Assembly (NCBI RefSeq): GCF_013249015.1
Contig: NZ_JABRPL010000001.1
Location: 916,318 to 980,317 of the forward strand
DNA: 64,000 nt
Source of the DNA: Rathayibacter agropyri
Lineage (GTDB): Bacteria; Actinomycetota; Actinomycetes; Actinomycetales; Microbacteriaceae
Reading direction: 5' to 3'
The notes beneath the pieces were generated by a model that worked only from the letters and a program-made list of their open reading frames with translations, searched no databases and had not been told where the DNA came from. A program made the translations under genes and the position numbers. Position 1 is the stretch's first letter; every line of letters begins with the position of its first letter. Positions 4,575-47,452 of the stretch are shown here, one piece after another.

Positions 4575-4616
4575 GTGGGACAGGCTAGGGCGTTGCAGCC
4601 TTCCGCGTCACATCGG

Positions 4617-5393: not shown

Positions 5394-5463
5394 GCCCGTC
5401 CCCTTCCGTCAAGCCTCGGACACCATCGACTCCGTCGTCGCAGCCCCACGCTAGTCTGGCCGC

Positions 5464-6621: not shown

Positions 6622-6683
6622 CGGGATTACCCCGTGTGTCGGGCGTCCTGGCCACCAGAACGGGCCGCGCGTACGCTCATCGC

Positions 6684-6703
6684 GACGGAGAACGGCTTCC
6701 GTC
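6684..6703 (+). promoter_or_regulatory. small hairpin in the metY leader
   Basis: A perfect 6-bp stem (GACGGA / TCCGTC) with an 8-base loop lies 30 bases before the metY start codon. It could shape the metY leader, but the surrounding 110 bases show nothing I can match to a SAM riboswitch class. Its role is unproven. Confidence 0.25.
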
Positions 6704-6733
6704 CCCGACCACGACGATCCGATGGGATGCATC

Positions 6734-8062: not shown

Positions 8063-8178
8063 CCCGTCCGTCACCTCTGACGAGATCGCCAGGATCGGGC
8101 GCGGGCTCCCGTCCGTTCTGCCCTTTCTCGTGAGATGACGAAGGAAGAAGGCGGCCGAGGCCACCGGGGTCTGGGACG

Positions 8179-31565: not shown

Positions 31566-31606
31566 GCTCCGCCTCCCACACTTCTGCCGACTCCCTGCTG
31601 GCCGAC

Positions 31607-31612
31607 TATCCT
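31607..31612 (+). promoter_or_regulatory. candidate -10 element, leaderless aroA
   Basis: TATCCT lies 8 bases before the aroA ATG. The sigR start is only 55 bp away on the other strand, so the two promoters must overlap or interlock. Confidence 0.4.
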
Positions 31613-31620
31613 GACAACCG

Positions 31621-32976
31621 ATGGTCTTCTCGCGTTATTCCGCTCCCGAGTTCGATCCGTACGGCGACGCCCGTGCGCTCCCCGGCGACGATGCGTGGCC
31701 CGCACCGCTCGCGGCCGGTGCCGTCGACGCCGAACTCGGGCTGCCAGGCTCCAAGTCGCTCACCAACCGGGAGCTGGTCCTCTCCGCCCTGGCCGAGGGC
31801 CGCTCCACGGTCCGCGCACCCCTGCACTCCCGCGACACCGCACTCATGATCGAGGCCCTGCGCTCGCTCGGCACGACGATCCGCGAATCGGGCGCGACCG
31901 GCGACTTCGGCGCCGACCTCATCGTGGAACCGGCCGAGGAGTTGCTGGGCTCCACCACCATCGACTGCGGCCTCGCGGGAACAGTGATGCGCTTCATGCC
32001 TCCGCTCGCCGGGCTCGCGCTCGGACCGACCACCTTCGACGGCGACGCGTATGCGGCGAAGCGGCCGATGGGTGCGACCATCGCGTCCCTCCGCTCGCTC
32101 GGCGTCGATGTGGCGGATGACGGCCGGGGCGGTCTTCCTTTTACTGTGCACGGCTCCGGCTCGGTCCGCGGCGGCGAAGCGATTATCGACGCCTCTCGTT
32201 CGAGCCAGTTCGTCTCGGCCCTGCTCCTGGCGGGTGCCCGCTTCGACGATGGGCTGCGCCTGCGCCACGAAGGCGGTCAGCTCCCCAGCCAGCCGCACAT
32301 CGACATGACCATCGCCGCGCTGGCGGCCCGCGGAGTCACGGTCGGCACTCCCGCTCAGGGCGAGTGGACGCTCGATCCGCAGGCCATCGCGGGAGCCGAT
32401 GTCCTCATCGAGCCCGACCTCTCCAACGCTGCCCCGTTTCTGGCCGCGGCGCTGGTCACCGGGGGCCGGGTCCGGCTGCGCCACTGGCCAGCCTCGACGA
32501 CCCAGGTCGGTGCGCACCTCGAGCGGATCCTCCCGCTCTTCGGCGCCACCGTCGAGCGGGACGGCGACGCCCTCGTGGTGACCGGCGGCGACGAGATCCT
32601 CGGAGTCGACCTCGACCTGTCCGAGGGTGGCGAGCTCGCACCGGCCTTGGCCGCGCTTGCCGCGCTCGCGAGCACGCCGAGCACACTCACCGGCATTGGC
32701 CACATCCGGCACCACGAGACCGACCGCCTCGCCGCCCTCGCCGCCGAGATCACGGGGCTGGGCGGGATCGTGACCGAGCTCGAGGATGGGCTGCGGATCG
32801 AGCCGGCTGAGTTGCACGGCGGACGTTGGCGCACCTATTCCGACCACCGGATGGCGCACGCTGGCGCCCTGATCGGGCTGGTCGTGCCCGGCGTCGTCAT
32901 CGAGGACATCGCTACGACCGCGAAGACGCTTCCGCAGTTCCCTGCGCTGTGGACCACTCTCGCAGGATCGATCTGA
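31621..32976 (+). CDS. aroA: 3-phosphoshikimate 1-carboxyvinyltransferase (EPSP synthase)
   Basis: A 451-residue EPSP synthase, the sixth step of the shikimate pathway. [14 protein letters not shown] near residues 40-53 binds phosphate and [13 protein letters not shown] near 118-127 replaces the GNAGTA-R-P of the E. coli type, a form seen in actinobacteria. RYSDHRMAH-like YSDHRMAH lies near the C-terminus. An approximately 30-residue N-terminal extension precedes the fold. rsgA begins three bases after the stop codon and bcp follows, so the three are likely one operon. Confidence 0.96.
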
Positions 32977-32979
32977 CCC

Positions 32980-34056
32980 GTGTCGTGGTGGACGGACAGC
33001 GGCCTCGACGCCGACGGCGTACTCGACGACTTCGACGGCTACGACGAATCGGACGCCCGCGTACGACCGAATCCGAAGGGCACCAAACCGCGCACCAAGA
33101 ACCGGCCCGCTTACGAGGACGCTGAGATCGCGATGGTTCTCGGCGTCGACCGCGGCCGCTACACGGTGATGATTGGCGACGGCACTCCCGAGGAGCACGA
33201 ATTCACTGCTGCCAGGGCGCGCGAACTGCGACGCCAGGCGATCGTTGCCGGCGACCGCGTTGATGTGGTCGGCGACTCGAGCGGCGACGACGGAACCCTC
33301 GCGCGCATCGTCCGAATCCGCGAGCGCTCGACCCTCCTGCGCCGCAGCGCGGATGACACTGACGCGATCGAGCGCGTCATCGTGGCGAATGCGGATCAGA
33401 TGCTCTGCGTCGTCGCCGCTGCCGATCCGGAGCCGCGCACCCGCCTGGTGGACCGTTACCTCGTGGCCGCCTTCGACGCCGGGATCACGCCGATGCTCTG
33501 CATCACCAAAACGGACCTCGCCGATCCGGCCCCGTTCCTCCGAAACTTCGATGGCCTGGATCTGCGCGTGTTCCTGTCGAGCCAGGACGAGCCGCCAGTC
33601 GACGAGATCGCGGAGGCGCTGCTCGGGCACGAGACGGTCGTGGTCGGGCACTCGGGGGTGGGCAAGTCGACGCTGGTGAACAAGCTGGTGCCGAACGCGC
33701 ACCGGGCCACGGGGCACGTCAATACGGTGACCGGCCGGGGCCGGCACACGTCCTCGTCCACCGTCTCCTTACGCGTCCAGCGCGATGATCGGCACGGCTG
33801 GGTGATCGACACTCCCGGCGTGCGCTCGTTCGGCCTCGGCCACGTGAATACCGACAACATTCTCGGCGCCTTCACGACCCTCGCCCACAGTGCCGAGGAC
33901 TGCCCGCGGGGCTGCACGCACCTCCCCGACTCCCCCGACTGCGCCATCATCGAGGCGGTCGAGGAGGGCACGCTGGGCGCGAGCGGGCCCGAGCGCCTCG
34001 ACTCGCTCCAGCGCCTCCTGACCACCTTCGCCACGACCGACGGAAGCAAACGATGA
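32980..34056 (+). CDS. rsgA: small ribosomal subunit biogenesis GTPase RsgA
   Basis: A 358-residue circularly permuted GTPase that matures the 30S subunit. An N-terminal OB-fold is followed by G4 (TKTDLADP), then G1 (GHSGVGKSTLVNK near 222-234), then G3 (DTPGVRSFGL). The zinc-finger region CPRGCTHLPDSPDC lies near 308-321. The start is a GTG three bases past the aroA stop. The stop overlaps the bcp start by 4 bp. Confidence 0.95.
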   Translation: MSWWTDSGLDADGVLDDFDGYDESDARVRPNPKGTKPRTKNRPAYEDAEIAMVLGVDRGRYTVMIGDGTPEEHEFTAARARELRRQAIVAGDRVDVVGDSSGDDGTLARIVRIRERSTLLRRSADDTDAIERVIVANADQMLCVVAAADPEPRTRLVDRYLVAAFDAGITPMLCITKTDLADPAPFLRNFDGLDLRVFLSSQDEPPVDEIAEALLGHETVVVGHSGVGKSTLVNKLVPNAHRATGHVNTVTGRGRHTSSSTVSLRVQRDDRHGWVIDTPGVRSFGLGHVNTDNILGAFTTLAHSAEDCPRGCTHLPDSPDCAIIEAVEEGTLGASGPERLDSLQRLLTTFATTDGSKR

Positions 34057-34547
34057 CCGACCTCTCCCCTCTCCCGATCGACGCGCGCCTGGGTTCCGGC
34101 GACGCCGCCCCCGACTTCACGCTCCCCGACCAGGACGGACGTCCCGTCTCGCTCCAGGACTACCGTGGGCGTCGGGTGATCCTCTTCTTCTATCCCGAGG
34201 CCGATACCCCAGGCTGCACTACTGAAGCGTGCGACTTCCGCGATAACGCCGCCTCGCTCCGCGACTCTGGCTACGAGGTGCTCGGGCTCTCCCGCGACAC
34301 TCCCCAGGCACTGCGCCGCTGGGCGGATGCGCAGGGCATCACCTATCCGCTGTTGAGCGACCCCGATATGACGGTGCACCGCGCCTACGCCGTGTGGGGT
34401 GAGAAGAGCCTCTACGGCAAGACCGTCGTCGGCGTCCTGCGCTCGACGTTCGTGGTCGGAGTTGAAGGCGGGCTCGAGTTCGCGCAGTACGGCGTCCGCG
34501 CCACAGGCCACGTCCAGGCTCTGCGGAAGAAGCTCAAGCTGGTCTAA
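34053..34547 (+). CDS. bcp: peroxiredoxin, BCP/PrxQ type
   Basis: A 164-residue thiol peroxidase. The peroxidatic cysteine is Cys55 in TPGCTTEAC, and Cys60, five residues on, is the likely resolving cysteine, as in PrxQ enzymes. It reduces hydrogen peroxide and organic peroxides in the cytoplasm. It is coupled to rsgA by a 4-bp overlap and lies close to the sigR oxidative-stress pair, though on the other strand. Confidence 0.94.
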   Translation: MTDLSPLPIDARLGSGDAAPDFTLPDQDGRPVSLQDYRGRRVILFFYPEADTPGCTTEACDFRDNAASLRDSGYEVLGLSRDTPQALRRWADAQGITYPLLSDPDMTVHRAYAVWGEKSLYGKTVVGVLRSTFVVGVEGGLEFAQYGVRATGHVQALRKKLKLV

Positions 34548-34668: not shown

Positions 34669-37431
34669 ATGAAGCGCAGAAGAGCACGGTGTATGCGGGT
34701 GGGTCTGATGGGCGCGGCGAGTGCCCTGATCGTCGGTCTCCTGGCGGGCTGCACCCCCTCACCTCCCCCGCTCCCCTCCTCGCGTGTCCTGCAGTCGGTC
34801 TCCGTCGCGGCGACGACCGACGGCAGCGTGCGAACGATCGACGCCACGGCCGTCGGAGTCGGGTCCGATGTGTCGCAGACCACCACCTCGACGACCTCCT
34901 ACGACCCCGCCGCCGTCGCAGGCGACCTGCCGGTCCGCGTGCGCACCTCGTACCGCACCGCGGACTCAGCGGGGACCAATCTCGCCGATCTTCGCGGCTA
35001 CTCCGGACGCGTCGAAATCTCCTTGGCGGTCGAGAATTTAACGGTCCACGCCGAGGACGTCACATTCGACGTCGCGGGTGGCGCGACGAGCCGATCTGCT
35101 CTCGTGGGAGCGCCGCTCACCCTCGCCGCCTCGACGGTCCTCCCCGGAGTCTCGCCGAGTCGGGTCGTCACCGCCGCTGAGACGGGCGCGGTGACAAACG
35201 GCGTGCTCAGTCGCGACGACGCGGGTGACGCAGTCCTCCAGTGGGCGTCGCTCCTCGCACCGCCCTCGGGAGGAGCGAACGCCACGCTGACACTCGTCGC
35301 CGACGTGTCCGACTTCGCCGTGCCGTCCTTCAACCTGGCGGTGCAGCCGGGGCTTGCGACGGATCCGACGCCCGCGGGCGCCCTCGAGGCGGCGTTCGAC
35401 ACGAGTCCGGCCTCTGCACTCGCGCTCCAGCGGCGCACAATCGACGTGATCACCTCCGTCGATGAGCTCTTGACCCATGCCGGGACGACTGTCGCCGAGG
35501 TGCGCACCGCGCTCGACGCGACGTCCGAGACGCTGGGCGTGCGCACCGCTGAGGAGCTGCGGCAGAGCACCGCCTCGACCGCCGCGTCGATGCAGGGCCT
35601 CTCAGGGCAGCTGACCGCCCTTCGGAGCGAACTCTCGACGACAGTCTCCGGCACGGAGTCGGGGCTGCTGCAGCAGCTCTCGCAGGCGATCGCCGCGGTC
35701 GACGCGATGCTCGGCGACACCTCGGCGTCCGTACCCAAGCCCGTGCTCTCGGGGAACGGCTGCTCCGTGGCGGTCAAGAATCCCAGCGGATCAGGCACGA
35801 TCCACTCCGAGCTGCTGCGGCTGACCGCCGAGCTGGACGCATACGGCACGGCCGCCGACTCCTGCCGCGAGCAGGTCGTCGCATCGCTGCGCAGCGCAGT
35901 CGGACCCGCGTCACCCACGGCTGAGAGCTGCACGACCTCCTCGATGACGTGCTCGCTCGCCGCCTCCGGTACCGCCGTGAACACCGTGCTGATCGGGCTA
36001 CTTCGCCAGGGCGGGGAGCTGGTCGACTCACTGCAGCCCGAGCTGATGGCCGGAGTGGAGTCGGAGTACTCCGTTCTCTCGACCCGGGTGGACGAGGCCA
36101 CAAAGGCCACCGACGCGCTGTCCGCCAGCGCCCCCGACGGCTCCGCTGCGACGACGCTCGCCGGGCTGACCACGACGCTCGACGGGATCGACGGCGAAGT
36201 AGCCACCCTTGAGAAGACCATGACGTCCGTCGGGAGCACCGCGTCAGCGGCACTCGACGAACTCGGCACACCCGACACAGCGGGCTCACTGGCGGCTCAG
36301 AACCAGGAGCTGGCGGACGAACTCTGCACACTGCTCCCCGCCCTCCCGGCACCCGCGGGGACACCCCGAGCCACGACCACACCGACGGCGACACCCGCAC
36401 CCGCCGGTACGCCAACCACCAGCATCGATCGTCTACGCGCCTACCTGACCGGCACCCCCTGCTCCGGCACGGGCCGGCTGGCGACTCCGAAGGGCTACTC
36501 CGCTCCACTAGCCGACCGGATCAACGAGCAGGCGAAGTCCTGGACCACGGTCGCGACGCTTGTCGGCAAGACCGGTGCGGGAGCCGACCTGACCGCGCTG
36601 CGCACATCGCTCGCCTCCCTTCGTACGACCGCGACGGAGACCGCAACTGCCCTGTCAGCCAACGACGGTCACCTCACGGAGCGGATCACCGCACTCCGTA
36701 CCGCCTCCGCCGCCCTCGTCGCGCAACGGGACTCGCTCGGCTCACGCGTCGACGCACTCTCCGTCCAGCAGGAGGCTCTGGCACCGGCGATCCAGGCGGC
36801 ATTCGCGCACGCGGACGCCGCCGCCGCCTCCGCAGTCGCCGCGATTCTCGACGATCAGATCCGCCGCGTCTCCGCGCGTTCCGTCGTCGACACCGAGGCG
36901 GTCACGACAATGTTCGATCGCTCCGTCTCCGGGCTGCACGAGACGGCCAACGACATCCGCGCCGACGGCACAGCGACGGTCGACGCGGAGCACCAAGCGT
37001 TGAGCACGGCAGAGGCCCGGATCGGTAGCGCGGTGTCGGAGCGCACCCGCGACTCGCTGACGAGGATCGCCACGACAATCGATGCGTCCACCCGCGACAC
37101 GGACGCCGCCTCCGCCCTGCTCACGGCCGATCTCCACAAGGTGCTGCTCGACCTGGGCGACCGCTCGGTCGGCGGCTCCGGCCTGCTCGGGTCGATGACC
37201 ACGAGCGCCGCCAAGGTCGGCACCGCCGACGTGCAATTGGCCCTCGCCTCCCAGAGCGCTCAGGGCTACGCCGGAGTGCGCTCCGAGGACGTCTCGGGCA
37301 TCCTCCTCGCTCAGGCGCAGGAGCGGGCCTCGCTCGTCGCCGCGGACACTCTCCCCGCGTTCCATCTCGACGCTCCGGAGGGTGCGCAGACGCAGACCGT
37401 GTACTCCTTCACGATCGGCGACGAACGATGA
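34669..37431 (+). CDS. large secreted lipoprotein of the type VII-like locus
   Basis: A 920-residue lipoprotein, family not recognised. The signal peptide ends in LLAGC (Cys28). Residues 30-270 look beta-rich and Thr/Ser-rich. From about 270 the chain is largely helical, with heptad-like runs (for example near 330-350, 480-540, 640-700), so long coiled coils are likely. A Pro/Thr-rich linker lies near 570-590, and pairs of cysteines near 365-445 suggest disulfides. Size and topology recall the extracellular part of EsaA-type T7SSb proteins, but I see no sequence proof. The start has GAGGGG six bases upstream, and the gene overlaps the next one by 4 bp. Confidence 0.78.
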   Translation: MKRRRARCMRVGLMGAASALIVGLLAGCTPSPPPLPSSRVLQSVSVAATTDGSVRTIDATAVGVGSDVSQTTTSTTSYDPAAVAGDLPVRVRTSYRTADSAGTNLADLRGYSGRVEISLAVENLTVHAEDVTFDVAGGATSRSALVGAPLTLAASTVLPGVSPSRVVTAAETGAVTNGVLSRDDAGDAVLQWASLLAPPSGGANATLTLVADVSDFAVPSFNLAVQPGLATDPTPAGALEAAFDTSPASALALQRRTIDVITSVDELLTHAGTTVAEVRTALDATSETLGVRTAEELRQSTASTAASMQGLSGQLTALRSELSTTVSGTESGLLQQLSQAIAAVDAMLGDTSASVPKPVLSGNGCSVAVKNPSGSGTIHSELLRLTAELDAYGTAADSCREQVVASLRSAVGPASPTAESCTTSSMTCSLAASGTAVNTVLIGLLRQGGELVDSLQPELMAGVESEYSVLSTRVDEATKATDALSASAPDGSAATTLAGLTTTLDGIDGEVATLEKTMTSVGSTASAALDELGTPDTAGSLAAQNQELADELCTLLPALPAPAGTPRATTTPTATPAPAGTPTTSIDRLRAYLTGTPCSGTGRLATPKGYSAPLADRINEQAKSWTTVATLVGKTGAGADLTALRTSLASLRTTATETATALSANDGHLTERITALRTASAALVAQRDSLGSRVDALSVQQEALAPAIQAAFAHADAAAASAVAAILDDQIRRVSARSVVDTEAVTTMFDRSVSGLHETANDIRADGTATVDAEHQALSTAEARIGSAVSERTRDSLTRIATTIDASTRDTDAASALLTADLHKVLLDLGDRSVGGSGLLGSMTTSAAKVGTADVQLALASQSAQGYAGVRSEDVSGILLAQAQERASLVAADTLPAFHLDAPEGAQTQTVYSFTIGDER

Positions 37432-38732
37432 GCCGGCTCGGGAAGCGGACCGCCCCGCGGACCAGGCCGGACCGGCGGCTCGTGCTGACGGGAGGCGCCG
37501 TGCTTGCGGCGCTGCTGATCCTCGGGGGCGTCCTGATCGCACTACTGCCGCCTCGTCCGACTCCGACCACATCGGTCGCCGAGCTGCCGGTCGGGTTCTC
37601 CTGCGCTCGAGTGCCCGAAGGGCTGACCCTCGGGGTCATCGTCTCGCTGAGTTCGGCTCCCGGCGAGGGATCGGAGTGGAAGGACGCCGCGAACGGAGCC
37701 GTGGTGGCCGCACGACGGTTCGCGATGGGCGGCTGCACGGTCCGCGTGGTCGCTGCCGATGACCACGGTACGGCAGACGGTGCGCGCGCGGCCGTGGAAG
37801 AGCTCGCGGGCGAGCAGGTGTCCGGTCTGGTGATCGCCACCGACGGCTCGCACACATCAGCGGCGGTCGACGCAGCGCGCGCGAGCGGGATCGCGGCGCT
37901 CCTCCCCTACGGCGGCGACGCGGCATCAGCCGGCGACGGTGCGTGGCTGACCGCGCCCGACGCCGCACGGATCGACGCCGCCCTGGTCGAGGCTGCCGGA
38001 GCGGGGTCGAGGACTCTCCTCGTCGATGCCGGCGGGACCGCTCCCCAAGCAGTCGCGCCCGAGGCGACCCTCGTCTTCGCCCCCGGCGGTTCGACGGCCG
38101 ACCTCGTCGACGCCGCTCGGCCATACCTCAGTGGGGAGCGCCCCGTGGACCGCGTTCTCGTCTCAGGTCCGGCCGAGACGCAAGCGATTGCCGTCGCTGC
38201 GCTGCAGGCCGCAGGAACCGCGACGCCGATCCTGCTCACGCCTGACGCGCAGAGCCCTCCGTTCGCCTCCGCACTCGTCGATGCCGGCGGGACGCTGTCG
38301 GGCGACCTGACAACGGCCGGAGTCGATTCCGGCGACGCAGTCGCGCTCCGTGGCGACGAGGCAGGACGCGCCATGTCCGCGTACCTCGCCGCCCTGCGAG
38401 TGACGGCCGACGACTCCACGCAGACAGCCCTCCTCGGCGACCGGCCGTTCCGTGACGTTTCAGCGGTCGCCGACACCCCCAGCCACGACGCCGTCGTAGC
38501 ACTCGTGCGTGCAGCTGCGGCGGCGGGTCGCCGAGATCCATCGGCGGTCAGAGCCGCGCTGAGCGGCTCCGTCGTGAGTCCGGCCGACGGCCTCGCCGGG
38601 CCCCGGCTCGATTTCAGTGCGCCGACCGCCCTCGGCGCATCGGTCCTCGCGCTGCACGCCACCCCGCAGGATCTCGGCCTGCGCCCGACCACCGTCCCAC
38701 TGCTCTGGTTCGCCGGACAGCCTCGACCCTGA
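37428..38732 (+). CDS. membrane-anchored periplasmic-binding-type protein
   Basis: A 434-residue protein with a basic N-terminus, one membrane helix (about residues 18-41) and an extracytoplasmic domain resembling type-1 periplasmic binding proteins of the Leu/Ile/Val family (LTLGVIVSLSS at the first strand, then alternating alpha/beta units such as VSGLVIATDGS). There is no transporter gene nearby. It sits between the large lipoprotein (4-bp overlap) and the EssC-like ATPase (9-bp gap), so it probably belongs to the secretion complex or its sensing part. The fold call is moderate; the ligand is unknown. Confidence 0.72.
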   Translation: MSRLGKRTAPRTRPDRRLVLTGGAVLAALLILGGVLIALLPPRPTPTTSVAELPVGFSCARVPEGLTLGVIVSLSSAPGEGSEWKDAANGAVVAARRFAMGGCTVRVVAADDHGTADGARAAVEELAGEQVSGLVIATDGSHTSAAVDAARASGIAALLPYGGDAASAGDGAWLTAPDAARIDAALVEAAGAGSRTLLVDAGGTAPQAVAPEATLVFAPGGSTADLVDAARPYLSGERPVDRVLVSGPAETQAIAVAALQAAGTATPILLTPDAQSPPFASALVDAGGTLSGDLTTAGVDSGDAVALRGDEAGRAMSAYLAALRVTADDSTQTALLGDRPFRDVSAVADTPSHDAVVALVRAAAAAGRRDPSAVRAALSGSVVSPADGLAGPRLDFSAPTALGASVLALHATPQDLGLRPTTVPLLWFAGQPRP

Positions 38733-38741
38733 GGACACACG

Positions 38742-41700
38742 ATGCGACTGCTCCTCGAACTCGACGATTCCCGCCACGATGTCGACCTCGGTCGGCACCG
38801 CTCGTCCGCGACCCTCGGCGACCTCGTGGAGGCCGTTACCGGGCGCCGGCTCGACGCTGGCACCGTGCTTGCCGTCGACTCCGCCCTGCACCCCGTCGAG
38901 ACTCCGATCGACGAAATCCTCCTGCTCGAGGGCACCAGAATCGCCCGCTCGGCCGAGCCACGGCCACGAGCAGTCGGAGGCTGGACCGCCGCGCTCTCGG
39001 GAGGTCTGTCCGCCGGACCCGTGGTCGAGATCCCCAGGAGCCGACCACTGACGGTCGGCCGAGCACCGCAGGCCGATCTCGTCCTCGATACGGCCAGCGC
39101 CTCCTGGGAGCACCTCACGATCGTCCGCGAGGGCGACGGTCTGCGAGTGCGCGACGCCGGAAGCACGAACGGGACTCTGGTCGACGGCGTGCCAGCCGAC
39201 AGTGACGGCACCGTCGTCACCGGGCCCGCTGTCCTGATCGCCGGAGGAGCCGCGGTCCTCCTCCGCCCTACGCAGGACGAACCGCGCGCTCCCGAGCCCG
39301 GCAGCTTGAACAACCTCACTGCAAACGCGACCGTGCCCTTCAACAGGCCGCCGCGTCCTGGCCGGTCCGCCGCCGCCGACCCCGTCGTTCCGCCGACGCG
39401 CGTCTCCGTCGCCTCCGCCACGAAATTCAGCATCATCACGGTCGTCGCACCACTCGTCCTCGCCTTCGCGATGGTGCTCATCATGGGCGACGCGCGTTAC
39501 GCCCTCTTCGCGGCCCTCAGTCCCGTGGCGGGGGTCGGCATGTGGTTCGAGCAGAAGCACCGGCACACCCGCTCCACGCGGTCGGAGGAGCAGCGGTTCG
39601 AGCAGGCGCTCCAGGAGTTCCGAGACGACATCGCTCGGGCAGCACGGGTCGAGCGGACGCGCCTCGAAGAGGAGGCTCCCGACCCGGCGACAGCGCTTCG
39701 CCGCGCCGCGCTGCCCACCACCTCGCTCTGGCAACGCCGCTCGACGGCAGCCGACGTGCTCACTCTCCACGCGGGCGTCGGTGATGTGCCGTGGACGCCG
39801 ACGCTCGATCAGCGCTCAGGGTCGCGGCCGGAGGACACGGTGCGCGAGATCTTGGCGAGCAGCGTGATCCCGAGTGCACCGGTCGCCGTCGACCTCTCCG
39901 ACGCGGGTGTAGTCGGAATCGTCGGCGACCGCGAAGGGGCACTGGCACTCGCCCGGAGCCTGCTCTGTCAGGCGGCGGTGCACTGCGGCCCCGCTGACCT
40001 GACGATCGGCGTCTTCTGTGACCGCGGCCGTGACAATGATTGGAGCTGGGCCTCGTGGCTGCCACACACCCGGCGCCCTGGCGGTGAGCGCTGGCTCTCG
40101 GACCACCGCGAACGCAGCACGGAGATCCTCCGCGGACTGCGCGACGCACTCGCCGAGCAGTCCGGGCCGCGCACGCTCCTCGTCCTCGACTCGGACGTGC
40201 TCACCGAGGGCCGGGACGCTCCCGCGCGCGATCTCCTTGGCTTCGGCCGGGGGCAGCGCGACGCCGGAGCCCGCGTGGCCGGCATCGTCCTCGCCGCCTC
40301 CGAGGAGCAGCTCCCCGCCTCGTGCAACGTGGTCGTGCAGATCGAGCCCGACGCGTCCGCGACGCTCTCCCGACCCGACGAGCGCCTCACCGTGGAGGAT
40401 GTCGTGCTCGCCGGACTCGACCGCACCAGTGCCGAGCGCTGCGCCCGCGACCTCGCCCGCTTCGAGGACCCTGAACTCGTCACCGCGGGGGCCGCGCTCC
40501 CCGGGCTGGTGCGCCTCCCGCCGCTGCTCGGCGTGGATCACCCGACGGTGGCCTCAGTCAGGGAGTGGTGGTCGACGGCGAAAGGAATACGGGCTCCGGT
40601 CGGCACCGGTGAGGGTGGCACGCTCGTCCTCGATCTCGTCGCCGACGGACCGCACGGGCTCGTTGGTGGTACGACGGGCTCGGGCAAGAGCGAATTCCTG
40701 CGCTCCTTCGTCGCGGGTCTCGCGGCACGCAACGATCCGACTCGCCTCAGCTTCGTCCTGATCGACTTCAAGGGCGGTGCGGCCTTCGCCGCGTGCGAAC
40801 GTCTGCCGCACACCATCGGAACGATCAGTAATCTCGACGAGCAACTGGCCGACCGCGCCCTGCGCTCGCTCGAGGCAGAAATGCAGCGGCGACAGCGCGT
40901 GTTTGCGGCCGCGGGCGAAGGCATCGACAACCTTGACGCCTACTGGGCAACATCGCCCTCTGAACCGATGCCACGGCTCCTCCTCGTCGTCGACGAATTC
41001 GCCATGCTCGCGAAGGAGCACCCCGATGTCTTAAAATCCCTGGTCAGCGTCGGCGCCGTCGGACGCACACTCGGCGTGCACATGATCCTCGCGACCCAGC
41101 GCCCCGCCGGCGTCGTCAACGACGACATCCTCGCGAACACCAACCTCCGCGTTGCGCTCCGGGTGCAGAGCCGCGACGACTCCGTGAACGTGATCGGCGT
41201 GCCGAGTGCGGCCGAGATCTCGCGGAGTCAGACTGGGCGCGCCTACGTCAAGCTCGGCCAGAACGACATCACACCCGTGCAGACGGCCCTGGTCACGGGG
41301 CGGGCTGAGGCGGAGGTCATCAACCTGGTCGAGGTCCGGACCGTCGGCTTTTCCGGGGTCCCCACCAGCGAGTCGACCCTCGGCTCGGCGGATGAGACAG
41401 CCCCGACCGACCTTGACCTTCTGATCGACGCGGTGGTCGAGGCGAATGCGGATGCGGGGTTCGCTCCGCCCCGTCCGATCTGGCCGGAACCGCTCGGCGA
41501 GTCCATCCAGCTCGGAGGCTTCGGCGCCGAAGAGTCCGACCTCGGCGACGTCGTCGACGACGTGCTGCGCATCGCGCTCTCGGACGACCCCGACAACCAG
41601 CGCCAGGTCACAAGCGGGTGGGACCTGACCGAGGGCAACCTCCTCCTGCTCGGCATCCCCGGCAGCGGCACCAGCACGGCGCTGGCCTCGGTCGCTCTCA

Positions 41701-42977
41701 CCGCGACCCGTCACTTCTCCCCCGGCGAACTCGACCTCTATGTCCTCGATGCGGCCTCCCGTGACTGCTCAGCGCTCGCGGATCTGCCGCACACCGTCTC
41801 CTATGTCGGAGCGGGAGCGGGAGCGCGGGAGAAGCAGACCCGCTTCCTCCGTCACATCCGCGACGAGGTGAAGAGGCGGCGCGCGTCTCACGGGGAGCGC
41901 CGCCGGACGCTGGTACTGATCGACGGCTTGGCGACGCTCAAGGACGATTTCGAGGATTGGGAGAGCCAGGGTCTGCTGGAGGCGTTGGCGCGGGCCTACG
42001 CCGACGGTCCTGAACTGGGACTGCACTTCGCCGTCACGAGCACCCGCGTCAAGGGCCTGCCGTCGGTGATGGAGGAGGTGACCACGCAGAAGTGGCTGTT
42101 CCGTTTCGCGGATCCACAGGATTACTCGATCGCCGGGGTGAAGCCCCGCTACGCCCCGCCGCCGGTGCCCGGCCGGTGCGTACTCACTTCGTCCCTCCTC
42201 CAGACACAGGTCGCGATACCCGCCGCGGGTCTGCACGCCGCCGTCACCGAGGTGGTCGCCGCCTGGCCCGACACCACCACCAAGACCACAGCGATCGCCA
42301 CATTGCCCGAGCGGGTGGCGATCAGCGCTCTCGGCGTCGAGGCCCGATTCGACGGCGAACCCTGGCGGATCCCCATCGGACTGGGCGAAGCCGATCTGGC
42401 GCCGCTCGCCTTCGAGCTCTATGAGGGCGAGCATGTGTTCATCTGCGGTCCCGCCCGCTCCGGTAAGTCCACGGTGCTGCTCGCGCTCGCCGAGGCCGCC
42501 CGCGCTGCCGGGACCGTCGGGATCTGGGGCGCGTGTGACCGCCGCTCGCCCCTGGTCGGCGCCGGTCTCGACCGGCTCGCCGTCGGTGCCGAGGAGCTTC
42601 GCGCCCTCCTCGCGTCCCTGCTGATGGAGGAGGGGCCGGTGCTGCTGCTGATCGACGATGCCGAACGTTGGGACGACCCCGGCCAGGGCCTGACGACCCT
42701 GATCTCCGGATCCCACCCAGGACGGTGCGTCATTGCCGCCGGACGTTCGGTCGAACTGCGCTCGCAATTCGGGCACTGGACGAAGGCCCTGGGCCGATCC
42801 CGGTCCGGCCTCTTGTTGCAGCCTGACTGGGAGCACGACACCCAGCTGTTCCCCGCGCCGATCCCCCGGCGCCTCCCGGTCCCGGCCACCGTCGGCCGCG
42901 GCTTTGTCAGCCTCGCGGGAGACGTGCACTTCCTCCAGGCGGTGTCGCCGACGCCGGAGCAGGAGGGGGACGGCTAG
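38742..42977 (+). CDS. EssC/EccC-like FtsK/SpoIIIE ATPase with FHA domain
   Basis: A 1411-residue motor of type VII secretion type. In order: an N-terminal region of about 95 residues, an FHA domain (about 100-175; LTVGR, then DAGSTNGT), two membrane helices (about 228-265), and three RecA-like modules. Module 1 has an intact Walker A (GTTGSGKS, 643-650) and Walker B (LLLVVDEFA). Module 2 has GIPGSGTST, with the Walker lysine lost. Module 3 has GPARSGKST (about 1236-1244). The FHA-TM-ATPase order matches EssC of T7SSb, not the mycobacterial EccC. The FHA domain could read phosphothreonines made by the kinase gene opposite. Confidence 0.9.
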   Translation: MRLLLELDDSRHDVDLGRHRSSATLGDLVEAVTGRRLDAGTVLAVDSALHPVETPIDEILLLEGTRIARSAEPRPRAVGGWTAALSGGLSAGPVVEIPRSRPLTVGRAPQADLVLDTASASWEHLTIVREGDGLRVRDAGSTNGTLVDGVPADSDGTVVTGPAVLIAGGAAVLLRPTQDEPRAPEPGSLNNLTANATVPFNRPPRPGRSAAADPVVPPTRVSVASATKFSIITVVAPLVLAFAMVLIMGDARYALFAALSPVAGVGMWFEQKHRHTRSTRSEEQRFEQALQEFRDDIARAARVERTRLEEEAPDPATALRRAALPTTSLWQRRSTAADVLTLHAGVGDVPWTPTLDQRSGSRPEDTVREILASSVIPSAPVAVDLSDAGVVGIVGDREGALALARSLLCQAAVHCGPADLTIGVFCDRGRDNDWSWASWLPHTRRPGGERWLSDHRERSTEILRGLRDALAEQSGPRTLLVLDSDVLTEGRDAPARDLLGFGRGQRDAGARVAGIVLAASEEQLPASCNVVVQIEPDASATLSRPDERLTVEDVVLAGLDRTSAERCARDLARFEDPELVTAGAALPGLVRLPPLLGVDHPTVASVREWWSTAKGIRAPVGTGEGGTLVLDLVADGPHGLVGGTTGSGKSEFLRSFVAGLAARNDPTRLSFVLIDFKGGAAFAACERLPHTIGTISNLDEQLADRALRSLEAEMQRRQRVFAAAGEGIDNLDAYWATSPSEPMPRLLLVVDEFAMLAKEHPDVLKSLVSVGAVGRTLGVHMILATQRPAGVVNDDILANTNLRVALRVQSRDDSVNVIGVPSAAEISRSQTGRAYVKLGQNDITPVQTALVTGRAEAEVINLVEVRTVGFSGVPTSESTLGSADETAPTDLDLLIDAVVEANADAGFAPPRPIWPEPLGESIQLGGFGAEESDLGDVVDDVLRIALSDDPDNQRQVTSGWDLTEGNLLLLGIPGSGTSTALASVALTATRHFSPGELDLYVLDAASRDCSALADLPHTVSYVGAGAGAREKQTRFLRHIRDEVKRRRASHGERRRTLVLIDGLATLKDDFEDWESQGLLEALARAYADGPELGLHFAVTSTRVKGLPSVMEEVTTQKWLFRFADPQDYSIAGVKPRYAPPPVPGRCVLTSSLLQTQVAIPAAGLHAAVTEVVAAWPDTTTKTTAIATLPERVAISALGVEARFDGEPWRIPIGLGEADLAPLAFELYEGEHVFICGPARSGKSTVLLALAEAARAAGTVGIWGACDRRSPLVGAGLDRLAVGAEELRALLASLLMEEGPVLLLIDDAERWDDPGQGLTTLISGSHPGRCVIAAGRSVELRSQFGHWTKALGRSRSGLLLQPDWEHDTQLFPAPIPRRLPVPATVGRGFVSLAGDVHFLQAVSPTPEQEGDG

Positions 42978-43019
42978 GGGCGGAGCCGTTCGGGCGGCGG
43001 CGCGATCGACGACGACCTG

Positions 43020-43342
43020 TCAGAACCACCACCGGAACGACGCGGAGCGTATCCGAACGTACTCGACAGCCTCGTCGAGTCGGGACGTGGCTTCGCGGTC
43101 CAGCGAGCCGTCCTCCTGAACGATTCGGTGGCTGTCGACGCCCCAGTCCTTCACCCGTAGGGCTGTCGCACACGCTTGCAGAGCAGCCGCATGTCTTTCC
43201 GTGTCGTCGCTTCGCGCGCGCGTTGGGCATGTTCGGCGAACAGGCCCGCATGAAAGCTCTTCGGCGGCAGTCGAGCCGCGAGATAGGCTAATGCCTCAGC
43301 GTACTCGTCTCGACGTCGGCCACTCAGGCGGAACAGGTCCAT
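43020..43342 (-). pseudogene. frameshifted candidate immunity protein, copy B
   Basis: From the ATG at 43342 the frame gives 63 residues ending ...RQPYG at a TGA (43151-43153). A neighbouring frame then continues from about 43150 to a TGA at 43020-43022 and ends SFRWWF. Joined, they give about 104 residues that align end to end with copy A at 43654-43977: RRDEYAEAL against RKEQFAETL, FAEHA..R.AT against FAHYA..R.AT, EDGSLD against ADGSID, and the FRWW tail. One missing base near 43153 explains the break. It may be a true pseudogene or a sequencing error. Confidence 0.65.
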
Positions 43343-43653
43343 CACTGCATCTCTTCAAAAAATTTTTGCGAGCCGGCTCAGAAGGCCGCGGTGTTCGAAA
43401 CACGATCCACTTTTCTCTCTCATTCCCCCGGATGTCTGTTCATACGACGATCGGGCTCGGCTGCCAAGATGACGCATTTGCTCGAGCGCCGGCGCCCAGC
43501 GCGCGAACCACGAATAGTTCACTACTTTCGATCATCGGCAGTCTGCGTGCGGACGGGAAAAATCAGCGAGCGCGGCCGCATACTTTTCTCTGCGCCGAGG
43601 AGAACGTCTGTGTTTTTCGAGCTACTCATCGGGCGCCGTGAAACTCGTGGATC
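43343..43653. other. gene-free AT-richer spacer between immunity copies
   Basis: About 310 bases with base composition unlike the flanks, including an A/T palindrome near 43357-43367. Short minus-strand frames (35 residues or fewer) occur, but none is convincing. One of them ends in a TGATG overlap with the copy B start, which could be the worn tail of another toxin gene. Confidence 0.4.
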
Positions 43654-43977
43654 CTAGAGCCACCATAACCACCATCGGAAACGGCGAGATTGTTGTAGAA
43701 CATCAGCTATTGCCTTATCGTACTTTTCCGTCTGCTGCAGATCGATACTCCCATCAGCATGCATAATACATCTGTCGCTTAGACTATTCATTGTACCTAC
43801 AAAATTTCTCGGCACAAGCGATGCAAGGTATCTTACTTGACGAAGTGACGTGGCACTTCTCACGGTGCAGGCATAGTGCGCAAACCGCTGTGACGCTTGC
43901 GGCGCACTCACTTCCAAGAAAGATAATGCACAGTGGTCTAACGTCTCTGCAAATTGCTCTTTTCGCAGTTGAGTCAG
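43654..43977 (-). CDS. candidate immunity protein, copy A
   Basis: A 107-residue frame if read from a CTG at 43977, which overlaps the TGA ending the toxin frame (CTGA, 43974-43977). A conventional TTG at 43917 would give 87 residues but would lose the conserved first helix (RKEQFAETL). It is mostly helical and ends in a tryptophan-rich FRWW tail. Similarity to copy B supports it as a real protein family. Codon use is unlike the rest of the window, with TTA leucines and AT-ending codons, which points to recent transfer. Its place right behind a toxin tail suggests immunity; the family name is unknown. Confidence 0.6.
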   Translation of the reverse strand: MTQLRKEQFAETLDHCALSFLEVSAPQASQRFAHYACTVRSATSLRQVRYLASLVPRNFVGTMNSLSDRCIMHADGSIDLQQTEKYDKAIADVLQQSRRFRWWLWWL

Positions 43978-44964
43978 GGGGCGAGGGACCAGGATTCTAT
44001 TTCCCTTCCGCTCGTCCTACCGTCAGGCAAGAACGTTTGGTTGGTTCCGCCGCGATACAGTTCACCAGTTGCACTACGCTGTCGCGCCGCTTCCAACGTG
44101 GCTTGAAAGGCCAGCCGGGAGTTCAGCAGAGAAACCTGTGTTCAGTATATTGCGATCACCCGTGGACCACACTGGCGGAAGGGCCTTCTCAGCGCGCACC
44201 ACGCTGACACTCAAGGGCGCATCTGTTGACCACCAATTGCCCGTGCGGGAACCATTGACGTCTCCTGCCCGGAACATCACCGTCGGTTCCGTCGTATACC
44301 GAGACCGATAGATCCAGTTATCGAAACACTTCATTTCCTCGACCGATAGCCAGGGAGGCATGTTCGCCGTGATCCCCGCCGTGGCCGCGCCGATCAGCGC
44401 GTTTTCCGTGCCTGCCGCGAGGAGACCCTCAGGCGTATACGGCCCCGGCTCCGCCACATACGCGCGCGCTCCATCAAACGCGCCCTCAGCCGCACCACTC
44501 GCAGCAGCGCCAACCGTCCGCGGCATAATAGTCGACGCCGCGCATTCTGAGACCATCCGCCCGCCGGGGTCGTACGCCCAGGAGGTGACCACGTCGCCGC
44601 GGGCCTCGACGAGCTGGCACGCCTCGCCATAGCGGTACTCCACCGCCCCCTCGTCACTACGGACCCGTGCAAGCCGCCCCTCGCTGTCGCGATCGAGGAC
44701 GGTAACGCGCCCTCGGTCGACGTGTTCGATGAGGAAACCATCGCGGTACCGCCACGTGTGCCGGCCACCGCCGACCGACGACGATGCGATCCGCCCAGCG
44801 GGGTCGTAGGAGAATTCGGCACGGCCGAGAAGCGGGTGTTCGATCGCGACGACTCTGCCCGCGGCGTCCCGTTCGTAGCGCGTCGCGGTGCCGTCGGGCC
44901 CGACGACGGCGGTGCGGACGCCGTCGGCGTCCTACTCCCACGCCAGGTTGTCGCGAACGGGACC
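43974..44964 (-). pseudogene. degraded Rhs/YD-repeat toxin C-terminal fragment
   Basis: A minus-strand frame carries about six YD-type repeats (TRYERDAAGRV, AEFSYDPAGRI, TSWAYDPGGRM and others), a short Ala/Gly-rich segment, then a variable domain from about 44500 down. There is an in-frame TAG at 44932-44934 within LAWE-DADG, where TGG would be expected. At 44074 the frame ends in TAG, but the +1 frame continues with ELYRGGTNQTF to a TGA at 43974, which looks like the natural end. There is no start region and no thousand-residue shell, so this is a remnant or a silent exchange cassette. The variable domain (FRAGD, then GNWWST) could be ADP-ribosyltransferase-like, which is only a guess. Confidence 0.7.
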
Positions 44965-45027
44965 TCCTCCTCGATTGCACCCAGATCCCGTACCGCCACC
45001 TCTCCCTACCGTGAACAGTCAGAAGGC

Positions 45028-45064
45028 GTCCCGCCCCTGCGCAAGGTGAGCGCAGGAGCGGGAC
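45028..45064 (-). terminator. hairpin after the WXG100 gene
   Basis: A 15-bp stem with one mismatch (45028-45042 / 45050-45064) and a 7-base loop begins 6 bases past the WXG100 stop codon. It separates that gene from the toxin remnant downstream. Confidence 0.7.
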
Positions 45065-45070
45065 GGTCGG

Positions 45071-45352
45071 TCAGCTTCCGCCGCCGGCGGCGAAGATGTT
45101 CTGCGAGATCGTCGCCAGCTGACCGCGCAGCTCCTCGAGTTCCTGCTTGGCCTTCTCCAGCGCCGACTTAGTCTCGGGCCAGGTCGAGGACCGGAACTGC
45201 GACGCCAGCGGACCATCCCAAACGTTGGGGTCGGACAGCGTCCGCCCCTGCGCGTCCAGCTGGCTGATCTGATCCGTTAGACCGCCGTTGATGATCGACT
45301 GCATCTGCTGGATCGCCGACTTGGCCTCTTCTGTTGAGAGAACACGAGACAT
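45071..45352 (-). CDS. WXG100-family secretion substrate
   Basis: A 93-residue, all-helical small protein. The central turn NVWDGPLA carries the W-x-G signature between two long helices, and the second helix has regular heptads (ETKSALEKAKQELEELRGQ). The size and layout are those of ESAT-6-like proteins exported by type VII systems. The start at 45352 has a purine-rich AAGAAGGG site about 9 bases upstream. It lies behind the kinase gene and 2 kb from the EssC-like ATPase. No partner WXG100 gene is adjacent, so it may form a homodimer. Confidence 0.85.
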   Translation of the reverse strand: MSRVLSTEEAKSAIQQMQSIINGGLTDQISQLDAQGRTLSDPNVWDGPLASQFRSSTWPETKSALEKAKQELEELRGQLATISQNIFAAGGGS

Positions 45353-45374
45353 GAACCACACCCTTCTTCCCAGT

Positions 45375-45420
45375 GCGGACGGGACCATCCCGTCCGCTCC
45401 CCCGCGGGTGAATCACCCGC
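45375..45420 (-). promoter_or_regulatory. twin hairpins before the WXG100 gene
   Basis: Two perfect inverted repeats lie head to tail: 45375-45384 / 45388-45397 (10-bp arms) and 45404-45411 / 45413-45420 (8-bp arms). The nearer one ends about 23 bases before the WXG100 ATG. They could terminate the kinase transcript or set the 5' structure of the WXG100 message. Confidence 0.55.
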
Positions 45421-45508
45421 TGAGAATGTCTCGTAAGCGTATGGCCCGAAATTGCTCAACCGTCGTTTTGCGCCAGCCATCCCGCGCCAGTGGCGCACGA
45501 CGAGGGTC

Positions 45509-47452
45509 TCAGTCGCGCGTCGTGATCGCGAAAGGACTGCTCGTGAGGTCGGAGAAGGCGCCCACCCGCGCTCGTAGCTCACAGGAGGGGGTGACCGACA
45601 GGGCAGTCACGGTCAGGCCGTCGGAGGACACGGCGACGGCGCCACCGCACCCGTCACTGAGCCGAACTCCGCTCACGCCACCGGCGACCGCGTCGAGCAT
45701 GCTGCTGGCGCGGCCCGCGGAGGGAGCGACGAGCAGCGGGTTCACAGGGTCCGCTCCATTTGGCCACACGGGCACAAGCGTCACCGGCAGCGGGGTCTGG
45801 CTGACCGTACGGGCCGGGGTCTCGATGCGGATATCGCGGAGGCGCTGCACTGGGTAGGCCGTCCCCGCGACGGCAGGATCGGAGACGGCCGTCGACGTCG
45901 CTGCTGACGCACGGCGAAGCCAGGCGTCCAGAGCGGCCTTGTCGCCCACGGGCACCGCGACAGTGGCGGTCACCACGACGGTCCCCTGCGCCGGGATGTC
46001 GAGCCCGGTCAGGTTCCAGCCGCAGGCGACTCCGACCCCCGTCACGCTCGGCTGGTTGCGCACACCCACCGCTCCGGACCAGGTAACGGCGGGGCAGGTC
46101 GCAGCGTCGTCGATGCCCGGCAGGACCTCGAGGAATGCCCCGCTGAGGGGTGCACTCTGCGCGGAGTAGGAGAGCTCGACGACGAGCGACTGCCTCTGCG
46201 GATCCCAGGACGCCGAGCGCGAGATCCCGAGGCCGGTGGGGAGCGGTCTGTCCTGCTGCTGCGCCGAGAACGCGGCCATCGATGATCCGCTCGGTAGGTC
46301 CTCTCCCCGCGGGAGGATCGCCACGACGACGGCCCCCACGAGGAGGGCCGCAGCGCCGACAGCGGCGGCGATCATTCGCGGGTCGAACCGCCGCCGAGTC
46401 GCAGCCACGGGCACAGGCGCCGCCGCTGCACGCAGCTCGCGCCGCGGCCGTGAGCGTAGGACCGTCGCCTGGGCGGACGGACCCAGCTCAGGCGCGGGCC
46501 CCTCCTCGGCGACCGGGACCGACTCGACCTCCGGTCCGGGGTGTGCGCCGCGCAGCACCGTCGCGGGACGCGCCACCTCCTCGAAGGTCGGCACATCAGC
46601 AGCGCGGGTGAGCGCGGGAACGCCTGCGAGTCCGGCGACGAGACCGCGCAGGATCCCGGACGCCTCCGCCGCGGTGGGCCGTCCCGAGGGGTCCTTTGCG
46701 AGCATGCGGTTGAGGATGGCCCCGACGCTGGGCGGGACGTCGATCGGAGGCGGCAGCATCGAGACGTGCCGGTATGCCACCGCGAAGTCGTTGCCGATCC
46801 CGGCGAACGGCGTGCGTCCAGAGAGCAGCTCGTAGAGCAGGATGCCGGTGGAGTACACATCGCTGGGCGGACCGGTCTCGCCCGTCGCGAGCATCTCGGG
46901 CGACAGATACTCGGGCGTGCCGATGATGCCCGTCGTCGCCCGAGGGCCTTCTGCGACGACGTGCGCGATACCGAAGTCGGAGACGCGGACTGCCTCGCCG
47001 AGGTCGGGCACCTCCCGCGCGAGCAGGACGTTGTCGGGCTTCACGTCGCGATGCACCGTGCCAATGGCATGAGCGGCGGCAAGAGCATCGAGGATGGAAG
47101 CGGTCGCCGCGACGGCTCGGCCGGCGGCGAGCGGCCCTTCAGCGTTCAGCAGGTCGCGGAGCGAGCCCCCACCGACCAATTCCATCACGATCGCGAGCGT
47201 GTCGCCCTCGACGACCAGGTCGCGAACCGCGACCACCCGCGGATGCCGCAGCCGCGTCAGGACCGAGCGCTCGCGGACGAACCGCTCGACGAGCCCGGTG
47301 TCTTGGGTGTGCTCACGCCGGAGGAGCTTCGCGGCGAGCTCGGACCCCTCGCGCACGTCGCGTACACGCCACACCTCGCCGGCCGCTCCGGCTCCGAGCC
47401 GATCGAGCAGTCGGTATCGCGCACCGAGGGCGTCCCCCACGTCCTCAGCCAC
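45509..47452 (-). CDS. membrane serine/threonine protein kinase
   Basis: A 647-residue PknB-type kinase. The catalytic domain (residues 12-275) is complete: glycine loop LGAGAAGEV, Lys42, HRDVKPDN with Asp136, DFG at 159-161, GTPEYLSPE. A Pro/Arg-rich linker leads to one membrane helix (about 355-378), and a 265-residue extracytoplasmic domain of unknown family follows, without PASTA repeats. It lies upstream of the WXG100 gene and faces the EssC-like operon; the FHA domain there is a plausible target. In T7SSb the kinase-fold subunit EssB is catalytically dead, whereas this one has all active residues. Confidence 0.9.
   Translation of the reverse strand: MAEDVGDALGARYRLLDRLGAGAAGEVWRVRDVREGSELAAKLLRREHTQDTGLVERFVRERSVLTRLRHPRVVAVRDLVVEGDTLAIVMELVGGGSLRDLLNAEGPLAAGRAVAATASILDALAAAHAIGTVHRDVKPDNVLLAREVPDLGEAVRVSDFGIAHVVAEGPRATTGIIGTPEYLSPEMLATGETGPPSDVYSTGILLYELLSGRTPFAGIGNDFAVAYRHVSMLPPPIDVPPSVGAILNRMLAKDPSGRPTAAEASGILRGLVAGLAGVPALTRAADVPTFEEVARPATVLRGAHPGPEVESVPVAEEGPAPELGPSAQATVLRSRPRRELRAAAAPVPVAATRRRFDPRMIAAAVGAAALLVGAVVVAILPRGEDLPSGSSMAAFSAQQQDRPLPTGLGISRSASWDPQRQSLVVELSYSAQSAPLSGAFLEVLPGIDDAATCPAVTWSGAVGVRNQPSVTGVGVACGWNLTGLDIPAQGTVVVTATVAVPVGDKAALDAWLRRASAATSTAVSDPAVAGTAYPVQRLRDIRIETPARTVSQTPLPVTLVPVWPNGADPVNPLLVAPSAGRASSMLDAVAGGVSGVRLSDGCGGAVAVSSDGLTVTALSVTPSCELRARVGAFSDLTSSPFAITTRD

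What the first reader, a model, noticed from the sequence alone, without database searches (positions are those of the whole stretch)
34669..47452. Compact type VII secretion-like locus with EssC-type motor and no EccB/D/E
The sequence shows an FHA-TM-triple-ATPase protein, a WXG100 protein, a large coiled-coil lipoprotein, a membrane-anchored binding-protein-like subunit and a kinase, all in one 13-kb block. Known actinobacterial ESX systems use EccB, EccC, EccD, EccE and mycosin; none of the other four is seen. The motor has the FHA-first order of Firmicutes EssC, yet the classic EsaA/EssA/EssB/EsaB set is not recognisable either. The lipoprotein and the binding-protein-like gene, coupled by a 4-bp overlap to each other and 9 bp from the motor, may be new structural subunits.
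Basis: partly seen in the sequence, partly recalled or inferred. Interest (0 to 1): 0.75.

Follow-up and report, generated by a model that had tools for sequence, protein, structure and literature searches.

The report
Compact type VII secretion variant
A Rathayibacter-like bacterium carries a small, apparently unnamed version of the type VII protein-export machine, built around one fused motor and two unfamiliar surface proteins, which probably ships large toxins to rival bacteria.

Summary
In detail: a 13-kb block encodes a coiled-coil lipoprotein (LPP), an anchored binding-protein-like protein (SBP), an EssC/EccC-related motor with an FHA domain, a WXG100 protein and a membrane kinase. They travel together: LPP and SBP precede the motor in 26 of 27 related loci, WXG100 is in 27 of 27 of those genomes, and SBP, WXG100 and LPP queries each hit the same 2 of 72,556 plasmids, where the whole set forms one locus. 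EccB is absent from 13 of 14 genomes tested.

The motor starts not with FHA but with a ubiquitin-like domain, then one canonical FHA. The kinase keeps its catalytic motifs. The window's own Rhs gene is a decayed remnant. Three of those 7 lack LPP, so LPP and SBP are clade-specific.

Best filed as a new type VII variant, like T7SSd/T7SSc in plan but with its own envelope parts. Secretion is inferred.

The parts
34669..37431 (+). LPP: 920-aa lipoprotein; lipobox cysteine, beta domain formed by both ends (residues ~39-227 and 907-916) and a mostly helical stretch of about 600 residues between
37428..38732 (+). SBP: 434-aa protein with N-terminal hydrophobic anchor and a HAAT-type periplasmic binding-protein domain
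   Evidence: profile A2 matches 4nqr E 8.2e-6 and 4obb E 8.5e-6; in 26 of 27 loci
38742..42977 (+). Motor, 1411 aa: ubiquitin-like domain, FHA, TM hairpin, then FtsK/SpoIIIE ATPase domains (D1 and D3 Walker A intact, D2 reads GSGTST)
38742..38957 (+). Ubiquitin-like (beta-grasp) domain fused to the motor's N-terminus
   Evidence: 20 of 23 PDB hits of profile A6 are ubiquitin-like by name, two of them with E below 0.01 (redesigned ubiquitin 4.4e-4, Hydra-1ubq 2.3e-3); predicted beta-beta-alpha-beta-beta-beta, block pLDDT 84-94 for residues 1-70; seen in 5 of 7 other-clade motors not used to build A6
38976..39275 (+). FHA domain with the phosphothreonine-binding residues G106/R107, S121, H124, N143/G144 invariant
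40665..40691 (+). D1 Walker A GGTTGSGKS
43151..43345 (-). Truncated relative of the small repeated immunity-type genes seen beside the R. tanaceti Rhs gene
   Evidence: cluster 29
43654..43917 (-). Second fragment of the same small immunity-type family (53% identical to R. tanaceti copies)
44074..45000 (-). Decayed Rhs toxin: first residues of the targeting domain, then only C-terminal Rhs/toxin sequence, with stops and frame breaks; described only, not mended
   Evidence: (no targeting-domain hit in the window)
45071..45352 (-). WXG100 protein, 93 aa (ORF from 45388)
   Evidence: 27 of 27 genomes, best match 77-100% identical, G023 only by partial matches
45509..47452 (-). Ser/Thr kinase, one hydrophobic segment and an extracytoplasmic C-terminal part; Lys42, HRD, DFG invariant
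   Evidence: a single TM segment is computed for its relatives in L088 and L089

Best explanation
A compact type VII secretion system of a variant not described in the papers searched. The motor, a hexamer by analogy, sits in the membrane by its TM hairpin. A WXG100 protein pairs with, or travels with, toxins that carry a ~250-residue N-terminal targeting domain, mainly Rhs proteins of about 1,800-1,900 residues and shorter alpha/beta-hydrolase proteins, and engages the motor's ATPase domains. The ubiquitin-like domain, separate as EsaB/YukD in T7SSb and part of EccD in T7SSa, is fused to the motor. The membrane kinase senses the envelope through its outer part; the motor's FHA binds a phosphothreonine that the kinase makes, on itself or a partner, and so licenses assembly. 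LPP, lipid-anchored with a long helical stretch, spans the wall in the role that EsaA or TsdI is thought to play elsewhere. SBP, anchored beside it, binds a ligand or gates the outer part. Shown: sequence, domains, conservation, linkage. Inferred: secretion, phosphorylation, the roles of LPP and SBP. The confidence given is for a type VII variant with this cargo; for LPP as a structural part I would say about 0.55.
For: Motor homologous to YukB (9qks, 1.6e-72) and EccC5 (7b9f, 7.8e-53), D1 and D3 intact. LPP-SBP-motor in conserved order in 26 of 27 loci; kinase in 25 of 27 loci (partial at contig ends in L002, L014, L018) and within 5 kb of WXG100 genes in the other two genomes. WXG100 in 27 of 27 genomes; outside Rathayibacter it is 77-82% identical against 58-61% for the motor and 41-45% for LPP. 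WXG100-LPP-SBP-motor-kinase in one block in G061 and G184 and on Rothia terrae plasmids p1 and p2, the only 2 of 72,556 plasmid records hit by each of three queries. Rhs targeting domain downstream of WXG100 in 27 of 30 loci, one partial; two such genes scanned have Rhs repeats and DUF6531. WXG100 and targeting domain in the same 7 of 199 genomes. Kinase and FHA key residues invariant. Purifying selection. LPP-positive motors form one group, support 89/96.
Against: No secretion experiment exists. WXG100 and the targeting domain also occur in G077, G147 and G152 without an LPP match, so LPP and SBP are not needed for this cargo type in every lineage. In G013 and G024 the WXG100 gene lies far inside another large contig, so it is not always linked to the motor. 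The LPP model is weak (mean pLDDT 60) and has no Foldseek match at E 0.001 or better (best 1.4e-3). The ubiquitin-like domain was not tested alone by fold search, since FHA filled the list; only two of its profile hits have E below 0.01, and 2 of 7 independent motors did not show it (L105, L111). The nearby Rhs gene of the window is broken; R. iranicus has 8 targeting domains elsewhere, but the window's own genome is not held. Rothia LPP as annotated lacks the signal region.
Confidence: 0.8

Rival explanations
1. The core system is just motor + WXG100 + toxin, and LPP, SBP and kinase are a sensing/regulatory module that decides when to fire rather than parts of the channel. (Not exclusive of the type VII reading.)
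For: Sister motors in G077 and G147, and WXG100-linked motors in G602 and G594, stand without LPP, SBP or kinase recognised nearby. SBP has a ligand-binding fold, and kinase plus FHA is a signalling pair.
Against: LPP is large, lipid-anchored and elongated in its (weak) model, unlike a usual regulator, and is strictly linked to the motor in its clade.
Confidence: 0.3
2. It is a divergent member of the described T7SSd (WXG100, FHA motor, kinase, TsdH, TsdI).
For: Same phylum, one WXG100, FHA motor with conserved phosphothreonine site, membrane kinase, Rhs cargo, as described in PMC11217815.
Against: T7SSd is reported to lack any ubiquitin-like protein and to have TsdH and an Ig-like TsdI; here the motor carries a ubiquitin-like domain, LPP is beta + helical, and an SBP is added.
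Confidence: 0.12
3. Not a secretion system: an envelope-sensing kinase with a DNA-translocase-like motor, or a defence locus.
For: FtsK-like motor; kinase resembles PADLOC PD-T4-6 kinases and the motor mad8/SspH/HerA models; SBP fold.
Against: Motor resembles type VII motors from about residue 200 to its end in overlapping matches; WXG100 and toxin linkage. LPP, SBP and WXG100 have no PADLOC match at E 0.001; that the kinase hits are generic to Hanks kinases is my judgement.
Confidence: 0.05

Closest known systems
T7SSd (Olsenella, Bifidobacterium; Garrett, Higginson and Palmer 2024, PMC11217815)
   Same: Actinomycetota; single WXG100; FHA motor with conserved phosphothreonine residues; membrane Ser/Thr kinase; Rhs cargo nearby
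   Different: T7SSd is reported without ubiquitin-like component and with TsdH and a large Ig-like TsdI; here the ubiquitin-like domain is fused to the motor and the envelope parts are LPP and SBP
T7SSb (B. subtilis Yuk / S. aureus Ess)
   Same: FHA-bearing motor, ubiquitin-like component, single-TM (pseudo)kinase-fold partner, large extracellular component, Rhs example in Listeria EssC8 (PMC10327511)
   Different: Kinase keeps its catalytic residues, FHA keeps its phosphothreonine site, ubiquitin-like domain fused; motor under the EssC cut-off; no EsaA or EssA recognised (not searched with their sequences)
T7SSc (B. anthracis, Paenibacillus; PMC11217815)
   Same: Active-site kinase with EssB-like topology, WXG100, Rhs cargo
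   Different: TscC is reported to lack FHA; no TscE/F/G recognised here (not searched with their sequences); LPP and SBP not reported there
T7SSa / ESX
   Same: Homologous motor core; WXG100; ubiquitin-like domain (in EccD)
   Different: No EccB in 13 of 14 genomes tested (11 with the system, 3 with the sister cargo); Klugiella has both systems as separate loci

Membership tests
Type VII secretion (any variant) | FtsK-related membrane motor of the EccC/EssC kind | tested here: met
   TIGR03928 1.1e-149, TIGR03924 2.5e-114; YukB 1.6e-72; neither subtype cut-off reached
Type VII secretion (any variant) | WXG100 protein encoded with the motor | tested here: met
   27 of 27 genomes; in one block in G061, G184 and on Rothia plasmids; unlinked in G013 and G024
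Type VII secretion (any variant) | Motor-dependent export of WXG100 and effectors | not testable with these tools
   Needs an experiment
T7SSa (ESX) | EccB | tested here: not met
   1 of 14 genomes, Klugiella, on another contig
T7SSa (ESX) | EccD, EccE, mycosin | tested here: inconclusive
   No such match among 30 of 46 window ORFs; not searched in whole genomes
T7SSb | Motor over the EssC family cut-off | tested here: not met
   500.4 vs 778.4 bits in the window; 0 of 14 genomes tested over cut-off
T7SSb | EsaA, EssA, EssB | tested here: inconclusive
   No match in the window scans; LPP fold search listed no EsaA, which excludes nothing
T7SSd | WXG100 + FHA motor with phosphothreonine site + membrane kinase | tested here: met
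T7SSd | No ubiquitin-like component | tested here: not met
T7SSd | TsdH and Ig-like TsdI; motor in the TsdC clade | not tested
   No named T7SSd sequence was at hand
EsaA/YueB/Pip family (LPP) | Homologous wall-spanning ectodomain with membrane-spanning C-terminus | tested here: inconclusive
   LPP profile positions 66-235 resemble two exported proteins, one with xxxLxxG heptads; fold search inconclusive; no C-terminal TM run seen by eye

The most novel reading that the evidence does not exclude
A distinct type VII subtype of Actinomycetota, sometimes plasmid-borne, in which an active kinase, a phosphothreonine-reading FHA and an extracytoplasmic ligand-binding protein form a firing circuit: the SBP/LPP spike senses a neighbour or envelope ligand, the kinase marks a threonine, and the Ubl-FHA motor then exports Rhs and hydrolase toxins through the LPP conduit. 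The Ubl-FHA motor plus WXG100 pair would be the ancestral minimal system.
Probability: 0.3. Interest if true: 0.82.

Novelty: new variant of a known kind. Interest (0 to 1): 0.64.

Why it matters
The 2024 survey names only T7SSa and T7SSd in Actinomycetota (PMC11217815). This adds a third arrangement, with a ubiquitin-like domain fused to the motor and a kinase with intact catalytic residues paired with a competent-looking FHA, so the proposed phospho-control of type VII motors becomes directly testable in harmless species. The survey left open whether variants other than plasmid ESX-4 ride on plasmids; Rothia terrae p1 and p2 (both typed non-mobilizable) show that this one does. Public annotation there calls LPP and SBP 'hypothetical protein' and the WXG100 'pyrophosphorylase', so the system is easily overlooked. 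The targeting domain gives a handle on many unannotated interbacterial toxins.

Tried and rejected
EccB outside the window: not found in R. iranicus and 12 others of the 14 genomes tested. The only positive control of that search was the Klugiella hit; none of the tool's 14 named control genomes rang.

Distant LPP, SBP or kinase beside the G077/G147 motors: none by profile at E 1e-3 within the 20 kb fetched; SBP and kinase were not searched genome-wide there. Genome searches with LPP scored at most 4 candidates per genome or 2, so absences are not absolute. One of five LPP matches (G104, E 8.2e-4, a stop inside) was dropped as chance. The first two motor trees used too strict a motif and kept 10 and 11 of 25 motors; one search keeps all 25.

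Defence system: PADLOC matches are to kinases and to mad8, SspH and HerA motors. PDB coiled-coil hits for LPP are read as low-complexity matches. Cluster 22 and the ORF at 31606-33747 (-) are, in my judgement, shadow frames opposite real genes.

Not in print: searches listed no description of this system (listings and, for four papers, passages or sections seen). The library lacks most subscription papers and bioRxiv.
Full report
WHAT IS THERE. The window very likely comes from a Rathayibacter close to R. iranicus (motor 96% identical; LPP 92%). Between prxQ (34053-34547) and the genes for a small membrane protein, WhiB, PdtaS and SecA lie LPP (34669-37431), SBP (37428-38732) and the motor (38742-42977) on the + strand, then on the - strand a decayed stretch (43.0-45.0 kb), the WXG100 gene (45071-45352) and a kinase (45509-47452) (WhiB and SecA are named by eye, PdtaS). 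LPP and SBP overlap by 4 bp; SBP and motor are 9 bp apart. Pfam gives nothing for LPP and SBP, NCBIfam nothing useful.

THE KINASE. Lys42, HRD 134-136, Asn141 and DFG 159-161 are invariant in 10 of 10 aligned kinases, in contrast to the pseudokinase EssB/YukC, whose cytoplasmic domain binds the FHA region of YukB (PMC9600267, passages). G106/R107, S121, H124 and N143/G144 of the motor's FHA are invariant in 12 of 12 motors (that these are the binding residues is recalled). That the kinase makes the phosphothreonine which the FHA reads is inference. TscD of T7SSc and TsdD of T7SSd are membrane kinases of similar plan (PMC11217815).

CO-OCCURRENCE. One scan of genome contigs with the motor gave 27 loci. 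LPP and SBP are in 26 of 27; the miss, L002, starts inside the motor. The kinase lies in 25 of 27 (partial at contig ends in L002, L014 and L018), and in the genomes of the other two (L001, L026) it lies within 5 kb of WXG100 genes. WXG100 is in 27 of 27 genomes, best match 77-100% identical, though G023 has only partial matches. Of 26 genomes checked (G023 left out) it is on the motor's contig in 21, within about 12 kb of LPP (the LPP position is only nominal for L002), and on another contig in 5; in two of these, G013 and G024, it lies far inside a large contig and is truly unlinked. In 199 genomes drawn from the family, LPP is in 4 (a fifth, weak match dropped), the motor at 1,241 bits or more in 6, WXG100 in 7, and the Rhs targeting domain in exactly those 7; 134 of 199 have some motor match at E 1e-60 or better, mostly other motors by score. 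If independent, two sets of 7 in 199 coincide with odds of about 1 in 2.2e12 (hand arithmetic; relatedness and adjacency of the two genes make the true figure less extreme). Among 396 genomes of the phylum, LPP is found only in G003 apart from two short matches to other exported proteins, and WXG100 in 4. On plasmids, SBP, WXG100 and LPP each hit Rothia terrae p1 and p2 and no other of 72,556 records at E 1e-5; p2 holds Rhs, WXG100, kinase, LPP, SBP, motor, an Rhs-core gene and small genes in 22 kb, with profile scores of 718 (LPP), 325 (SBP), 2128 (motor), 772 (kinase) and 151 bits (WXG100); p1 has the same block.

CARGO. The WXG100 gene is followed on the same strand by an Rhs targeting domain in 27 of the 30 loci L028-L057 (misses: R. 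iranicus L028, L039, and the contig-end L054; L032 is partial). Two Rhs genes scanned carry DUF6531 and Rhs repeats. Small repeated genes, immunity genes by position only, sit beside them (no Pfam family in the two scanned). The targeting domain also heads shorter proteins, mostly in open frames of 580-850 residues, elsewhere in the genomes; 4 of 5 scanned carry Abhydrolase_8, and in L127, L129 and L130 duplicated small genes, lipoprotein-like in part, follow. In the window only the first residues of the targeting domain and C-terminal pieces remain. R. iranicus aligns to the same stretch in pieces (its frames were not examined) and has 8 targeting domains elsewhere. LPP, SBP, motor and WXG100 are under purifying selection (dN/dS 0.14, 0.19, 0.09, and no amino-acid change), so the machinery is likely still used, with cargo encoded elsewhere. 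Rhs cargo for type VII systems has precedents: LrhA with EssC8 in Listeria (PMC10327511, passages) and the T7SSc and T7SSd loci (PMC11217815).

AGAINST MY READING. G077 and G147 have a sister motor, the WXG100 and the targeting domain without LPP, and G152 has a motor of another group (473 bits) next to the same kind of WXG100 and Rhs genes. So the cargo does not require LPP and SBP in every lineage. The LPP-positive motors form one group with moderate support (89/96), inside a larger group with the G077/G147 pair (100/100) and then L122 and L123 (100/100), far from the Klugiella ESX motor. No experiment shows secretion.

WHERE IT FITS. The 2024 survey defines T7SSa to T7SSj by motor clade and neighbours (PMC11217815; abstract, text parts 2-4 of 7 and Discussion read). 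I therefore call it a new variant of a known kind, not a T7SSd member. The R. toxicus genome paper mentions T7SS proteins and YD/RHS proteins in passing (PMC5552033, one passage). Searches listed no description of this system.

Noticed in passing
L114 (G001:C29, 9.4 kb contig of the R. iranicus draft): A second, T7SSb-like set: EssB-like protein by eye (8178-9317 -), EssC-like motor in two ORFs (5860-8181 and 3702-5858 -; TIGR03928 625 and 692 bits) and a WXG100-like gene by eye (2564-2920 -). T7SSb is reported from Bacillota; contamination of a small contig is not excluded.
   Followed up: partly
L122 (G602:C7:258000-268000): A ubiquitin-like+FHA motor and a WXG100 gene sit between pup and the proteasome beta/alpha genes, inside what looks like a Pup-proteasome cluster (gene names by eye).
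   Followed up: no
L123 (G594) and L120 (G602): Motor + WXG100 pairs next to groEL (by eye); no LPP, SBP or kinase recognised by eye beside the L123 pair.
   Followed up: no
L121 (Klugiella G026:C4:71000-90900): A separate ESX/T7SSa locus (EccB by PF05108, plus mycosin-, EccD- and EccC-like ORFs by eye) in a genome that also has the new system.
   Followed up: partly
L104 (Curtobacterium G003:C15:158000-177900): A second ubiquitin-like+FHA motor (1473 aa) with two small WXG100-like genes and a 628-aa protein with a WXG-like start, by eye: another compact type VII-like locus.
   Followed up: no
L125-L130: Shorter putative substrates: targeting domain + Abhydrolase_8 in 4 of 5 scanned, with duplicated small genes of immunity type after three of them.
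   Followed up: partly
Rothia terrae plasmids NZ_CP062961.1 and NZ_CP062960.1: WXG100 gene annotated 'pyrophosphorylase', LPP and SBP 'hypothetical protein'; the same system on two plasmids of one strain, with multicopper oxidase and CueP genes nearby.
   Followed up: yes
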